Assembly (NCBI GenBank): GCA_030849075.1
Contig: JASAOO010003532.1
Location: forward strand, 1-64,000
Source of the DNA: Zelonia costaricensis
Lineage: Eukaryota > Euglenozoa > Kinetoplastea > Trypanosomatida > Trypanosomatidae
Length of the DNA stretch: 64,000 nucleotides
Reading direction: 5' to 3'
Shown here: one piece after another, positions 47,460 through 53,640 of the stretch
Numbering within the stretch: position 1 is the first letter of the stretch
Layout of the letters: each line of letters starts with the position of its first letter
Notes under the pieces: model-generated
The model's input: the letters and a program-made list of their open reading frames with translations, nothing else
What the model was told of the DNA's origin: nothing
The model's database searches: none
Program-made: the position numbers and the translations under genes

Positions 47460-48566
47460 TCAGTTCGGGACGTCGTAAGGGTCGCGCGTGACCGGCCGCA
47501 GCTCCCGCGCATCCCGCGACGTCATCTCTGACTCCTCCACCGCGCCGCTACGGACGCCGTTGCCGCCGCGGCCCGCACTCTCGCGCGACGCTGACTTGGA
47601 GGGGTACGCGTCCTTGTCCCCCTCCTTCGACGCGAAGGGCTCCGCGGCGGCCGCCGTGGCAAGCCCGGCCGCCTGTCCCCGCCCTCCAAGTGGCATCAGC
47701 TGGCAGCGCGGCATGCGACGGTGCGGTGAGATACACAGCACGCGGAACGCCGAGAAGCCGTACCAGAGGAACAACAAGATGCGCAGCACCAGCGCCACTA
47801 CGGTGAGGTAGTAGCCCGAGGCGTACCGCACCTTTCCACCCTGCGCCTTCGCTGTGTTGTACACCCACGCAATGTTGTACAGCACCACGCTCTGCAGTAC
47901 GAGCCCGATGAGCTCCACGCCCCAGTGCACGCCGTAGATGCCCGCGTTGCGTGACAGGCGCGACCGCTCGTTTGCCTCGAAGCCGCAGCACGGCCCCAGC
48001 ATGCCCTCCTGCTTCCACGCACTCGGCACCCCGCCCGCGCTGAACACGCGGCCGTCCGCGTGCACCTGCGCCCCGCGCCTCTCCAGCAGCTCGCGGTTGA
48101 AGGACTCCTCACTCACGCGTGCGTGCTGGTCCAGTAGCACGCAGCACGTGATAACGATAGGGCAGATGCAGGAGAACAGGATAAGAAAAATGATGACAAG
48201 GATAGAGCAGATGATCAGCGATGTGCTGCGCTGTGGCGAGTCAGCCAGATCGCCCGCGTAGCCACCTATGATAGCGCTGTAGAAGAAGTTCTGCACGGCG
48301 TAGCACGGCGTGCAGAGCCCAAGCAGCACGAGCAGAAACGCGATCACCTCAAACAGCACCATCGCGACCGCCGCTAAGAGCCGCAGCGCGTACACGCGCG
48401 GCGAGAGGGAGTAGCCCGGGTGCACGACGAGGTAGCGCTGCTCATCGTAGCCCACAGCGAGGTGGTTCTGCTCGTGCGCCTCTGTGGATAGGGTGGAGTG
48501 GCGGACACCCGGTGGCAGCACGGTGGCAGGCACCACGGCCACGACATCTGCAGCGTGCGCGTCCAT
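47460..48566 (-). CDS. four-span membrane protein, tandem copy 1
   Basis: The protein has 368 residues and is the downstream member of a tandem pair with the gene at 51038-52009. Residues 1-55 are a soluble N-terminus. Four hydrophobic segments follow, at about 62-85, 113-142, 216-237 and 250-278. A ~70-residue cytosolic-looking loop between the second and third contains a conserved GPCCGFEANERSR stretch. The tail after 290 is polar and ends in DPYDVPN. Four spans recall amastins, but the amastin signature after the first span is absent and the loop is far longer, so I do not call it one. The first ~55 residues and the loop are nearly identical to copy 2 in DNA; the spans differ. The ATG at 48566 is the start shared by both copies. 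Confidence 0.85.
   Translation of the reverse strand: MDAHAADVVAVVPATVLPPGVRHSTLSTEAHEQNHLAVGYDEQRYLVVHPGYSLSPRVYALRLLAAVAMVLFEVIAFLLVLLGLCTPCYAVQNFFYSAIIGGYAGDLADSPQRSTSLIICSILVIIFLILFSCICPIVITCCVLLDQHARVSEESFNRELLERRGAQVHADGRVFSAGGVPSAWKQEGMLGPCCGFEANERSRLSRNAGIYGVHWGVELIGLVLQSVVLYNIAWVYNTAKAQGGKVRYASGYYLTVVALVLRILLFLWYGFSAFRVLCISPHRRMPRCQLMPLGGRGQAAGLATAAAAEPFASKEGDKDAYPSKSASRESAGRGGNGVRSGAVEESEMTSRDARELRPVTRDPYDVPN
47926..48134. repeat. near-identical 209-bp block shared with the second four-span gene (loop)
   Basis: Compared base by base with 51369-51577: same length, one mismatch in 209. It encodes the loop between spans 2 and 3. Confidence 0.9.
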
Positions 48567-48590
48567 GACGGCAGCAGCGGGAAGCACACA
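48398..48590. repeat. near-identical 193-bp block shared with the second four-span gene (5' end)
   Basis: Compared with 51841-52033: same length, four mismatches in 193. It covers the first ~55 codons and 24 bases of the 5' leader. Confidence 0.9.
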
Positions 48591-49563
48591 AGCGTGTTGA
48601 GTGCGGAGACGGTTTGCTCGATCAGGTAAGAGAGACACTGATACAGCAGTGCTAAGGTGGGAGTCGTCACGCACAGTGCAGTGGCAACGGGGTGTGAGGC
48701 TGTGTACGTCAGCGGGGTGAAGAAGCTGCCGAGGGTTGCGGTCCAGCGTCGATGCGTGAGCGCGTGTGTGGTGCTGGTGGTTGCGCGCAACGAGGTGGTG
48801 GGGCAGGTGGGAAGCCGGAGAGGTGAGAAGGGAAGGAGGATCAGAAAACAGAGAAGCATCACGCGGTTCCCTCCATCACGCACGCGGCGGAAAGCAGACG
48901 CAGCAGGCAGGGAGCGCGGCGCGCCGTAGCTGCACTCGCACTGGCCAGCTGCTGCACGCGCCACCCCCCTCCCTTCACTTCATACTACACGATGAGGCCA
49001 CCACGAACGCCACATGGGCCTGAGCCCGCACCCGCACGAGAACGGAGGCGCGCCATCTAGTGGGGCGCAGGGGGGAGGGGGACTAAACCACGAAAGACGA
49101 CGACCGCTGACGTGTGTGCGCGTCGGCTGCGCGCAACGCACTGGTGAGCCGCGTGTGCAGCCGACGCGCTGTTTCCTTTTTCGTGGGTTTGGTCGCGAGT
49201 GCGGTGTGCAGTGGCGCGCCATCGTCCCTCTTCCGTTCCCGCTCCACTCCAGCACTCTTGATCACAACGAGAAAGAACAAAAAAAAGGAGATGCGCACGT
49301 TGCAGTGGTAGTGGCCGGCGTGTGCCACAGAGACAGCACCGAGAAAGTGGCTGTGCAGCCGAGGCGGCGAGGTGACGGAGGGACGAGAATACCAAGACTC
49401 GAGTGCGCTGGTAGTGCGCTGGGTGTAGGTGTGGGTGTGGGGGTGCTCTCGCAAGGCCGGAGACACGCACGCATGTGCACTACATAGAACGCAGGAAAGA
49501 GACAAGGCAACGAGGCTGCGGGGGGGGGAGGCTGGAAGGCAGAAGGACTTTAAATGAGAGCGG

Positions 49564-49603
<40 letters not shown>

Positions 49604-51037
49604 GCACGAAGGAGAGCGAAGATGAGCCGTAGAATAGAGAAGGAGAGGGTGTCCAACCCGCACGTCGGTCACGGACGCACCGGCGCACGAGACAACCGAA
49701 GCCGTGCCTTGGCACAACGCAAGAGACGCGCAACCCAACCCCACGCACGCCTCCCACACGCACGCACACAGTTCGCGCACACCCGCACCGTGTGCGTAAC
49801 AGCGGGAGAAGGAGAAAGAGAGAGGGGCAGCGAAGGACAAGAGACACGCGCGTGTGTGGAGGGTGAGAAGGCGGGAGGGGGTGCTGTAGAAACACCCGCG
49901 ACATGCCCATGTGCAGCAAGCGGCACTAGCACTAGACGGCGTGGGAAACCGCCCTCGTGAATGGATGTCCATCGGCGTGTGTGTGTGTGTGAGAGGGAGG
50001 GAGAAAAAGGGGAGGGATGTAAACAAACGAAAAATGTTGCCGAGCGCCGCAGCAGGTGAACAACAATGCGGGGCTGTCGGGATTGAGATAGAGAAATGGG
50101 GGAGACGACAACGGCGAGAACGCAGCGGGGGGGGGGCGCCTAGAAATAGACTGAGTTCGTTGAGGCCGGCCACCGATCCACGTGAGACACCGGTGTCTGT
50201 GCGGGCCTGCGTGTATGTGCGTGTGTATATATAAAGCAGTAAAGAGGGTGGGAACTCTCAGCCAGACCGCGCGAACGTGAGAGAGAGAGAGAGCGTCGAG
50301 TGTCACCTCACTTGAAAACGAAGAAGGGAACACATAACAAAAAAAAGGGAGAACACGAGCTGCTCGATGTAGACATCAAAACATCAGTGGGCTTCGTCTT
50401 TCCTTATTTTGTTAAGAGCTTCACCGATTGCAGCAACGAGAAGAGGAAGGAGAGCAGCATGAGACAGACGAGGTGGTGACCAGCACACCCAGCCGCACCA
50501 CCACACAGGCACCCCGCCGCCGCACTCCGTCCACACCGGGATGCGCACCCACGGGAGAGGGGTTGCCCTCCCCCCCCCCCTCTCACCCCCAACCCTCCGC
50601 TCTTCGCATCCTCGGGTGCACTGCACCGCGTGGCGACGCTGCGCAGCGCTCGGTGGGTGCCAGAGCAGCTGGTGGCGAGAAGGGGTGCTGCGGTGGCGTG
50701 CTGTGCAGCCTCGGCGTCGCACTCATGAGCTCAAGCACACAATTCACACGCGCTTGATCAAAGAACTCAAATGCAACCTTGATGGGCAGGCGCGCCATTC
50801 AGCTGCGGCGCGCACCGCAGCGAGGCGGTGCGGTTGACGAGGTCCATCTCCCGCGAGCCACGCACCGACATCATCCCACTTACATAGCAGAAGAAAAACA
50901 AAGTAAAGGAGCCGCGCGACGGGTACGAGCACAACGCTAATGGCCGCGAACGCGATGCCAGCTCGCCGCGTCCTAGCGCATGGCAGGTTCTCCTCCGCCA
51001 CATTTGCCGCCTAGTCACCCAGCGCGTCATAGGGCAG
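48567..51037. other. spacer between the two four-span genes
   Basis: This 2.5 kb has a (CA)n run at 49565-49602, GT sequence at about 49976-49992 and 50205-50230, a G9 run near 49521 and a C10 run near 50571. Beyond the 24 bases next to the ATG it does not resemble the flanks of the other copy. ORFs here are low-complexity; no gene is seen. Confidence 0.6.
49565..49602. repeat. (CA)n microsatellite
   Basis: Uninterrupted CA run of 19 units in the spacer. Confidence 0.9.
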
Positions 51038-52009
51038 CTACTTGCTTCCCTCCACCTTCTCGCCCGCGTTGACGTCAACACCAGAGCACTGCCGCGCGGA
51101 CAGCTCCACCGCGCGCGACGCTGCGGAGGGGAGTGGAACAAGCTGGCACCGCGGCATCCGGCGATGCGGCGCGATGCACAACACACGAACCGCAGAGAAC
51201 CCGTAGCCCAGGAACTCAAGCGCCTTCACCACCAGCGCGGCGATGACAAGGTAGAAGCCGGCCATGAACTTGGCGGACAAGAGGTTTAATACCGCCACCC
51301 GGTGCACCCACATCATGTCGTACAGTATGATACTCAGCAAGATCACGCTGACGCACTCGATCGCGCACTGCACGCCGTAGATGCCCGCGTTGCGTGACAG
51401 GCGCGACCGCTCGTTTGCCTCGAAGCCGCAGCACGGCCCCAGCATGCCCTCCTGCTTCCACGCACTCGGCACCCCGCCCGCGCTGAACACGCGGCCGTCC
51501 TCGTGCACCTGCGCCCCGCGCCTCTCCAGCAGCTCGCGGTTGAAGGACTCCTCACTCACGCGTGCGTGCTGGTCCAGCGGCACGCACACCGCGATGACCA
51601 CCGGGCAGATGCACGAGAACAGGATAAGAAAGATCATGACGATGAGGCTACTCACGATCATCGAGAAGGCGCGGCCGGGAGAGTTCGACTGGTACCCGCC
51701 GTAGCCACCGTCCAGCGACACGTACGTGATGTTATCGATCCGGTAGCACGGGGTGAAGAGAGAAACCAGCACGAGCAGCAGGGAGAGCACCTCCAGAAAC
51801 ACCAGCGCGATGGCGGCTGCCATTCGAAATCCGAAGACGTGCGGCGAGAGGGAGTAGCCCGGGTGCACGGCGAGGTAGCGCTGCTCATCGTAGCCCACAG
51901 CGAGGTGGTTCTGCTCGTGCGCCTCTGTGGAGAGGGTGGAGTAGCGGACACCCGGTGGCAGCACGGTGGCAGGCACCACGGCCACGACATCTGCTGCGTG
52001 CGCGTCCAT
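51038..52009 (-). CDS. four-span membrane protein, tandem copy 2
   Basis: The protein has 323 residues and is the upstream member of the tandem pair. The layout is that of copy 1: soluble N-terminus, spans at about 62-85 and 113-142, long loop, spans at about 215-235 and 250-275. The polar tail is shorter and unrelated, ending GEKVEGSK. Against copy 1, the N-terminus differs at only a few residues and the loop at one, while spans 1-2 and the outer loop between them are clearly diverged and spans 3-4 more so. The short sequence TPCY after span 1 and FLILFSCICP in span 2 are kept. Function unknown. Both copies are intact, so divergence of the membrane and outer parts may be functional. Confidence 0.85.
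   Translation of the reverse strand: MDAHAADVVAVVPATVLPPGVRYSTLSTEAHEQNHLAVGYDEQRYLAVHPGYSLSPHVFGFRMAAAIALVFLEVLSLLLVLVSLFTPCYRIDNITYVSLDGGYGGYQSNSPGRAFSMIVSSLIVMIFLILFSCICPVVIAVCVPLDQHARVSEESFNRELLERRGAQVHEDGRVFSAGGVPSAWKQEGMLGPCCGFEANERSRLSRNAGIYGVQCAIECVSVILLSIILYDMMWVHRVAVLNLLSAKFMAGFYLVIAALVVKALEFLGYGFSAVRVLCIAPHRRMPRCQLVPLPSAASRAVELSARQCSGVDVNAGEKVEGSK
51369..51577. repeat. near-identical 209-bp block shared with the first four-span gene (loop)
   Basis: Partner of 47926-48134, with one mismatch. Confidence 0.9.
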
Positions 52010-52033
52010 GACGGCAGCAGCGGGAAGCACACA
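51841..52033. repeat. near-identical 193-bp block shared with the first four-span gene (5' end)
   Basis: Partner of 48398-48590, with four mismatches. Confidence 0.9.
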
Positions 52034-52941: not shown

Positions 52942-53640
52942 CTACCGCGGCTGCCACGTAATGATGTTGTAGGAGGTGGAGTTCATCTGGCGATCAAGGA
53001 AGCGCTGTCGTGACGCGTACTGCGCACGTGCGGCGGCCTTGCGAGCCTCCAACACCTCCTTCCCACCTGTGGTGTAGCACTGATGGGTGATCGGGTCGCG
53101 GTCGTCCTGCTCGCGATTCTTGCGCGTCGTGCCAGTCACGTCGGCAAGGCGCTGCTGCTCCGCGGCGAAGTCGGCATCGCGGGACGCCTGCAATGCCGCC
53201 TCACGCGCCGCGGCCCGCACGCGACGCGTATTGAGGTGTTCCTGCGCCTGCTGCCGCGCCGACACGCGCGCTCGGCGTAGCGCGTCGTCGGCGGTGAGGT
53301 TGATGTCGAGTCGCTCCGAGTCCGTCATGTATGCGGCTCCGCCACGGCCGCTGGCGCGGCGCTCGCGCGGGTTCGGCTGGAGCTGCTGCAGAAGAACGCC
53401 ATAGCTGGACGACGGCGACGCCGAAGCGGCGGTGTCTGCAGTCCTGCAGTGGGCGGCGGCGGCGGTGCTGGTGTTTGTGGTGTGCGCCGTGGGGGCCGCC
53501 GGCTCTGTGGACACGGGGGGCAGGGGGATGATGGGATGCTGGTAGCCGGGTGGGTGCTGCAGCACCTCTGCCTGGTGCTTGCGCACCCCGCGGTACGGGA
53601 TGGGCTTGAGGTGAAAGGGAGCCTCGTTGCCGAAGATCAT
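52942..53640 (-). CDS. small unknown protein
   Basis: The protein has 232 residues and is basic. Residues 1-45 have a Pro/His/Tyr-rich motif (PIPYRGVRKHQ, then HPPGYQHP). A Thr/Ser/Ala-rich linker covers about 45-85. From 105 to 215 it is a single helical, Arg/Ala/Gln-rich region, and it ends with a compact polar segment, NSTSYNIITWQPR. No membrane helix, signal peptide or enzyme motif is visible. Short basic proteins with Pro/Tyr-rich N-termini and helical tails occur among axonemal microtubule-associated proteins, but that link is speculative. The ATG at 53640 follows a C/T-rich stretch, with the best acceptor AG at 53693-53692. Confidence 0.75.
   Translation of the reverse strand: MIFGNEAPFHLKPIPYRGVRKHQAEVLQHPPGYQHPIIPLPPVSTEPAAPTAHTTNTSTAAAAHCRTADTAASASPSSSYGVLLQQLQPNPRERRASGRGGAAYMTDSERLDINLTADDALRRARVSARQQAQEHLNTRRVRAAAREAALQASRDADFAAEQQRLADVTGTTRKNREQDDRDPITHQCYTTGGKEVLEARKAAARAQYASRQRFLDRQMNSTSYNIITWQPR

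What the first reader, a model, noticed from the sequence alone, without database searches (positions are those of the whole stretch)
47460..52009. Tandem four-span genes are a mosaic of near-identical and diverged blocks with sharp edges
The two genes share a 193-bp block at the 5' end (4 mismatches) and a 209-bp block over the loop (1 mismatch). The 263-bp segment between these blocks, equal in length in both copies and encoding spans 1-2 and the outer loop, is strongly diverged, as are spans 3-4 and the tail. The switch from ~99% identity to divergence is abrupt. That is what repeated short gene conversion would leave, with the outer and membrane parts escaping or being selected to differ while the inner domain is kept uniform. 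The same pattern appears in surface-antigen families, but this family is unknown to me.
Basis: partly seen in the sequence, partly recalled or inferred. Interest (0 to 1): 0.75.

Follow-up and report, generated by a model that had tools for sequence, protein, structure and literature searches.

The report
Twin genes evolving partly in concert
Two neighbouring genes for a four-span membrane protein in a relative of Leishmania keep copying their inner parts from one another while their membrane and outer parts drift apart, and a second genus shows the same patchwork with its own sequence.

Summary
Confirmed to the base. Tandem genes A (48566..47460) and B (52009..51038) share a 193-bp 5' block (4 mismatches) and a 209-bp inner-loop block (1). 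The equal-length 263-bp segment between, spans 3-4 and the tails are diverged. dS steps from 0.05 and 0 of 50 sites to 0.8-1.2. The longest identical run was not reached in 20000 codon permutations. Novymonas esmeraldas holds the same pair next to the same upstream gene. Its copies are 96-97% identical to each other in these two blocks, 54-79% in the spans and loops, and only 65-77% identical to the window copies in the blocks. Constraint cannot do that; recurrent, lineage-specific gene conversion can. Trees of the blocks reject orthologue grouping; span 1 plus outer loop leans towards it, not significantly. Selection to keep outer parts different is possible but not shown: dN/dS is 0.4-0.5, and edge and controlled placement tests are not significant. 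The unnamed protein (LMJF_27_1930 in L. major) looks like a remote amastin/claudin-like relative. Partial conversion of tandem genes is known in trypanosomatids (PMC1855330).

The parts
47460..48566 (-). Gene A, downstream copy, 368 aa four-span protein with the longer C-tail
   Evidence: ORF; same family as the hits (alignment); its tail matches that of NESM_000527000 best of the six tails compared
51038..52009 (-). Gene B, upstream copy, 323 aa four-span protein with shorter tail
   Evidence: ORF; best hit NESM_000526900, 63% identical
48398..48590 (-). 5' near-identical block of A (24 nt upstream of ATG plus codons 1-56)
   Evidence: 4 mismatches to B, dS 0.05
51841..52033 (-). 5' near-identical block of B
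48135..48397 (-). Diverged 263-bp segment of A: span 1, outer loop, span 2
   Evidence: dS 0.78, dN 0.41 over codons 57-144
51578..51840 (-). Diverged 263-bp segment of B
   Evidence: dS 0.78, dN 0.41 over codons 57-144
47926..48134 (-). Near-identical inner-loop block of A (codons 145-213)
   Evidence: 1 mismatch, 0 of 50 synonymous sites changed
51369..51577 (-). Near-identical inner-loop block of B
47460..47925 (-). Diverged spans 3-4 and C-tail of A
   Evidence: dS 1.21, dN 0.48 over codons 214-289
51038..51368 (-). Diverged spans 3-4 and C-tail of B
   Evidence: dS 1.21, dN 0.48 over codons 214-289
52942..53640 (-). Upstream neighbour, homologue of NESM_000526800; anchors gene order
   Evidence: NESM_000526800, LSCM1_03545 and JKF63_03372 each carry the locus tag next to that of the family member of the same species

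Best explanation
A and B are an old tandem pair of a four-span membrane protein, a remote relative of amastins. Their 5' end (with the N-terminal part) and their inner loop keep being overwritten from one copy to the other by short ectopic gene conversion. Spans 1-2 with the outer loop, spans 3-4 and the tail have escaped it long enough for synonymous sites to approach saturation. Shown: the dS steps, the within-species homogenisation of the same two blocks in Novymonas to a different sequence, and the rejection of orthologue grouping in both blocks. Inferred: that one duplication before the window/Novymonas split underlies both pairs; that a feedback (similar stretches convert, dissimilar ones no longer can) together with purifying selection on the inner module sets where the blocks lie; that the N-terminus and the span 2-3 loop face the cytosol; and that the two proteins share one cytosolic partner or anchor while differing in their membrane and outer faces. 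The confidence given is for the gene-conversion statement; the functional inference is much weaker.
For: dS 0.047 (N-block), 0/50 synonymous changes (loop) against 0.78 and 1.21. Longest run 132 nt, 0 of 20000 permutations. Novymonas pair: 95.9% (residues 8-56) and 97.1% (145-213) identical to each other, 65-74% and 74-77% to the window copies. The eight Leishmania/Porcisia sequences are hardly more conserved in the N-block (0.64) than in span 1 (0.61), yet A/B identity is 0.96 against 0.46. Orthologue grouping rejected for N-block and loop (AU p about 2e-4 or lower); for span 1 plus outer loop it is better by 5.1-5.8 log units, species grouping not rejected (p 0.13). Four sites fit A-N2/B-N1 and none A-N1/B-N2. 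Neighbouring locus tags put the Novymonas pair next to the same upstream gene. The homogenised stretch around the loop runs to residue 228 in Novymonas and starts, with two mismatches, near 132, against 145-213 in the window, so its edges are not fixed functional boundaries.
Against: No orthologue DNA was examined, so dS across species was not measured. Over all diverged columns, over spans 3-4 and over span 2 species grouping is best, and in span 2 the tree with duplication before Leishmania is rejected (p 0.040) and the plain orthologue tree is at p 0.053; 15 of the 43 species-pair sites lie outside the two blocks. So two independent duplications, or conversion beyond the two blocks, are not excluded. 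No reads or second strain to rule out a collapsed or chimeric assembly.
Confidence: 0.85

Rival explanations
1. An addition to the best explanation rather than its opposite: conversion is balanced by selection. A and B have different membrane/outer functions, so conversions that overwrite spans or outer loop are removed, while the shared inner module is free to homogenise (the red/green opsin situation).
For: Spans and outer loop are diverged in both species; A/B identity in span 1 is 0.46 although the outgroup sequences conserve it about as well (0.61) as the N-block (0.64). Orthologue-like signal is strongest in span 1 plus outer loop, and outer loop B-N1 identity is 75% against 43% for A-B (A-N2 is only 39%).
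Against: dN/dS 0.4-0.5; edges not significantly at membrane boundaries; co-location after control for conservation 20 of 283 shifts; span 2 leans to species grouping and the Novymonas loop stretch enters span 3, so conversion reaches the membrane part too.
Confidence: 0.35
2. Two independent duplications, one per lineage, each followed by divergence of spans and outer loop and by conversion of the same blocks.
For: Species grouping is best over all diverged columns together, over spans 3-4 and over span 2.
Against: Same position next to the same neighbour; 4 to 0 copy-specific sites; A's tail matches N2 best. A recent duplication without conversion is excluded, since diverged parts (dS 0.8-1.2) cannot be as young as blocks with dS 0-0.05.
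Confidence: 0.2
3. Strong nucleotide-level constraint (antisense ORF, RNA element) on the two blocks rather than conversion.
For: A 107-aa antisense ORF overlies most of the loop block in both copies.
Against: Novymonas copies are 97% identical to each other but about 25% different from the window copies in the same protein stretch; a constraint strong enough to freeze synonymous sites would freeze the orthologues.
Confidence: 0.02
4. Assembly artefact: repeats collapsed or copied between the two genes.
For: The blocks are in the length range of short reads; no reads were available.
Against: Five scattered differences are resolved inside the blocks and another genome shows the same pattern with its own sequence.
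Confidence: 0.04

Closest known systems
Partial concerted evolution in trypanosomatid tandem arrays (Jackson 2007, PMC1855330; abstract and one section read, which names PGK and hexose transporter arrays)
   Same: Tandem neighbours, parts homogenised by conversion, other copies or parts diverged and retaining orthology
   Different: In the section read, segregation is mostly by whole gene copy or by UTR; here two internal coding blocks alternate with diverged ones in a two-gene set of an unnamed family
mtrA-1/mtrA-2 of methanogens (PMC4632066; abstract and outline read)
   Same: Non-membrane domain homogenised by conversion in separate lineages while the membrane part differs
   Different: There the distinct membrane domain came by domain shuffling and fusion; here the membrane parts are homologous and only diverged
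Red/green opsin divergence peak (PMC3924837; passages read)
   Same: Low divergence by conversion flanking a peak of divergence
   Different: In opsins the peak sits on known functional changes; here no functional difference is known
Amastins (PF07344)
   Same: Four spans, likened to claudins (PMC4671664, passages read), remote profile match
   Different: No significant Pfam match, no amastin signature in the outer loop, about 65-residue inner loop with PCCGFEANERSR
LMJF_27_1930 / LPMP_271920 / NESM_000526900 and 527000
   Same: Direct homologues of the window genes
   Different: One hit per species in Leishmania and Porcisia, two in Novymonas; all unnamed

Membership tests
Tandem paralogues under partial gene conversion | Sharp alternation of near-zero and high synonymous divergence | tested here: met
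   dS 0.047, 0.78, 0.0, 1.21 along the gene
Tandem paralogues under partial gene conversion | Converted blocks group by species, against orthology | tested here: met
   N-block and loop: orthologue trees rejected, AU p about 2e-4 or lower; protein sequences only
Tandem paralogues under partial gene conversion | Unconverted blocks group by orthology | tested here: inconclusive
   Span 1 plus outer loop favours it by 5.1-5.8 log units, species grouping p 0.13; span 2, spans 3-4 and all diverged columns lean the other way
Tandem paralogues under partial gene conversion | Sliding dS against orthologue DNA | not testable with these tools
   By their descriptions the DNA collections hold bacteria, archaea, viruses, phages and plasmids, or allow no scan (metagenomes); none was scanned for this. 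G000 has no relatives held
Amastin (PF07344) | Match above Pfam gathering score | tested here: not met
   Neither window protein lists it at E up to 1; 1 of 12 members matches, at E 0.14
Amastin (PF07344) | Cysteine/tryptophan signature of the outer loop (as described in PMC4671664) | tested here: not met
   Read from the alignment: no member has the LW-C-C arrangement in outer loop 85-112; the window copies have one Cys there
Amastin (PF07344) | Remote homology over the four spans | tested here: met
   hhalign score 37.4 (probability 63.5%) against at most 22.3 in 60 local column shuffles and 16.6 reversed; bridge proteins at C361/C449 score 53.5 (89.1%) to this family (60 shuffles at most 28.4, reversed 17.0) and 67.3 (96.3%, no shuffles run) to amastins
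Claudin/TARP/LHFPL fold | Structural match of the four-helix core | tested here: inconclusive
Antigenic-variation family | Many silent donor copies feeding an expressed site | tested here: not met
   3 matches among 4 scored candidates in G000: the two copies and one at E 0.006; counts are lower bounds

The most novel reading that the evidence does not exclude
The pair is a long-lived conversion-selection balance: two membrane proteins with different outer/membrane specificities are held on one shared, continually re-uniformed cytosolic chassis, maintained in parallel in at least two lineages since a single old duplication.
Probability: 0.3. Interest if true: 0.55.

Novelty: new member of a known kind. 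Interest (0 to 1): 0.38.

Why it matters
It is a clean, small, two-gene example of partial concerted evolution with the same blocks homogenised in two genera, in a family that is unnamed in the records seen. It gives a natural map of which parts of the protein may be shared and which may differ, and it warns that orthologue assignments and trees made from whole sequences of this family can mislead.

Tried and rejected
Nucleotide constraint or antisense coding as the cause of block identity: rejected, because orthologues differ in the same stretch. Alignment of block edges with membrane boundaries: not significant, 0.12 with all hydrophobic segments (including two short N-terminal ones that are hardly spans) and 0.10 with the four main ones. 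Co-location of homogenised stretches in the two species: 9 of 290 circular shifts raw, but 20 of 283 after controlling for outgroup conservation, and 22 and 16 of 283 with other smoothing widths. Positive selection on the outer loop: dN 0.55 against dS 1.23, no support. Whole-diverged-region tree as proof of a shared duplication: not obtained. Sequence search of solved structures: three matches, best E 0.34, nothing meaningful. Literature on the locus: no held paper contains any of six identifier spellings; two of them (LmxM.27.1930, LinJ.27.1810) were my guesses. Host species: not established. The Zelonia and Endotrypanum assemblies in PMC10747355 (passages read) differ from G000 in size and contig number, which does not exclude other assemblies of those genera. 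The first amastin extraction script picked wrong strands for several loci and was redone; only numbers are used. Of the 20 amastin matches, extracted 18 (not L017 and L018, second domains of frames already taken) plus L003; six of these 19 frames (L003, L019-L023) were left out of the amastin alignment as weak, partial or bridge proteins.

Full report
Observation. The window holds two genes on the minus strand, B (52009..51038, 323 aa) upstream and A (48566..47460, 368 aa) downstream. Base by base from the ATG they differ at only four of the first 169 nt, and 24 nt before the ATG are identical. They then diverge abruptly for 263 nt without an indel, become identical but for one base over nt 433-641, and diverge again. 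Nei-Gojobori counts give dS 0.047 (codons 1-56), 0.78 (57-144), 0 of 50 sites (145-213) and 1.21 (214-289); dN is 0.016, 0.41, 0.006 and 0.48. The longest identical run, 132 nt, exceeds the maximum (80) of 20000 codon permutations. At positions where the amino acid is the same (Met and Trp left out) the codon is the same in 117 of 119 cases within the blocks and 53 of 82 outside. A stretch whose protein is conserved without conversion exists in the same gene (codons 271-290, dS 2.2), which is a useful internal control.

Relatives. A search of the protein collection returned 10 homologues: two in Novymonas esmeraldas (NESM_000526900 = N1, NESM_000527000 = N2) and one each named for L. donovani, L. 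orientalis, L. mexicana, L. panamensis, L. major (LMJF_27_1930), L. martiniquensis, Porcisia hertigi and L. tarentolae. A profile search returned the same 10. Both searches scored only the roughly 8000 candidates sharing most words. Entries are clusters at 90% identity, so a second near-identical copy in Leishmania is not excluded. The window's upstream neighbour matches NESM_000526800, LSCM1_03545 and JKF63_03372, each with the locus tag next to that of the family member of its species. The locus is therefore syntenic, and if locus tags follow position the order is neighbour, B/N1, A/N2 in both two-copy species.

Conversion in two lineages. The Novymonas copies are 95.9% identical to each other over the N-block (residues 8-56) and 97.1% over the loop, but 65-74% and 74-77% identical there to the window copies. 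Eight outgroup sequences have mean pairwise identity 0.64 (N-block), 0.61 (span 1), 0.52 (outer loop) and 0.69 (loop); the A/B values are 0.96, 0.46, 0.43 and 0.99, and the N1/N2 values 0.96, 0.57, 0.61 and 0.97. So conservation does not explain the blocks. Novymonas is more homogenised elsewhere too (spans 2 and 3 at 0.78-0.79). Constrained trees (LG+G4) reject orthologue grouping for the N-block and the loop separately (AU p about 2e-4 or lower). For span 1 plus outer loop the orthologue trees are better by 5.1-5.8 log units, with species grouping at p 0.13. Span 2, spans 3-4 and all diverged columns together lean the other way; in span 2 the orthologue tree is at p 0.053 and the tree with duplication before Leishmania at p 0.040. 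A-N1/B-N2 pairing is rejected by AU in all eight column sets examined. Unconstrained trees of the diverged parts also pair the copies by species, with weak to moderate support (50-80). Among sites in the four sequences, 4 fit A-N2/B-N1, 0 fit A-N1/B-N2 and 43 fit species pairs, 28 of these 43 in the two blocks. I read this as one old duplication with recurrent conversion that has also touched span 2; two separate duplications with the same later behaviour remain possible.

Why these parts. The edges differ between the species: the Novymonas stretch around the loop runs to residue 228, inside span 3, and begins near 132, inside span 2, with two mismatches. Coincidence of the window's edges with membrane boundaries is not significant. 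dN/dS in the diverged parts is 0.4-0.5. A feedback, in which similar segments go on converting and dissimilar ones no longer can, is enough for the data; selection to keep spans and outer loop different is compatible but unproven.

Known kind. Partial conversion of tandem genes is documented for trypanosomatids (PMC1855330, abstract and one section read; PMC4413820 and PMC7400496, passages read). A membrane/non-membrane split of the same sort is reported for mtrA (PMC4632066, abstract and outline), and the divergence-peak theory is set out in PMC3924837 (passages). No held paper contains any of six identifier spellings tried. Hence: new member of a known kind, unusually clear because two genera show it with different sequences.

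Noticed in passing
G000:C361 (L021) and G000:C449 (L022): Two proteins of 505 and 572 aa bridge this family and amastins: four spans, long inner loop, Pro-rich tails; the C361 protein shares the N-terminal YxAxHPxYS pattern with the window genes.
   Followed up: partly
47938-48261 and 51381-51704, + strand: A 107-aa antisense ORF lies over most of the inner-loop block and part of the diverged segment in both copies, probably a by-product of GC-rich coding sequence.
   Followed up: partly
P0001 (NESM_000526900): The annotated protein carries an N-terminal extension not seen in the other 11 members of the alignment; the start is probably placed too far upstream.
   Followed up: no
52942-53640: The upstream gene encodes an unnamed conserved protein (MIFGNE start) with hits in Leishmania, Porcisia and Novymonas, a 91% identical copy (P0011) and two distant ones (P0020, P0021) from a source labelled lgn.
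   Followed up: partly
C-tails of A (47460-47700) and B (51038-51140): A and NESM_000527000 share a tail ending REL-PV...P-D; B and NESM_000526900 have shorter, dissimilar tails, so the tails may differ in function or sorting.
   Followed up: partly
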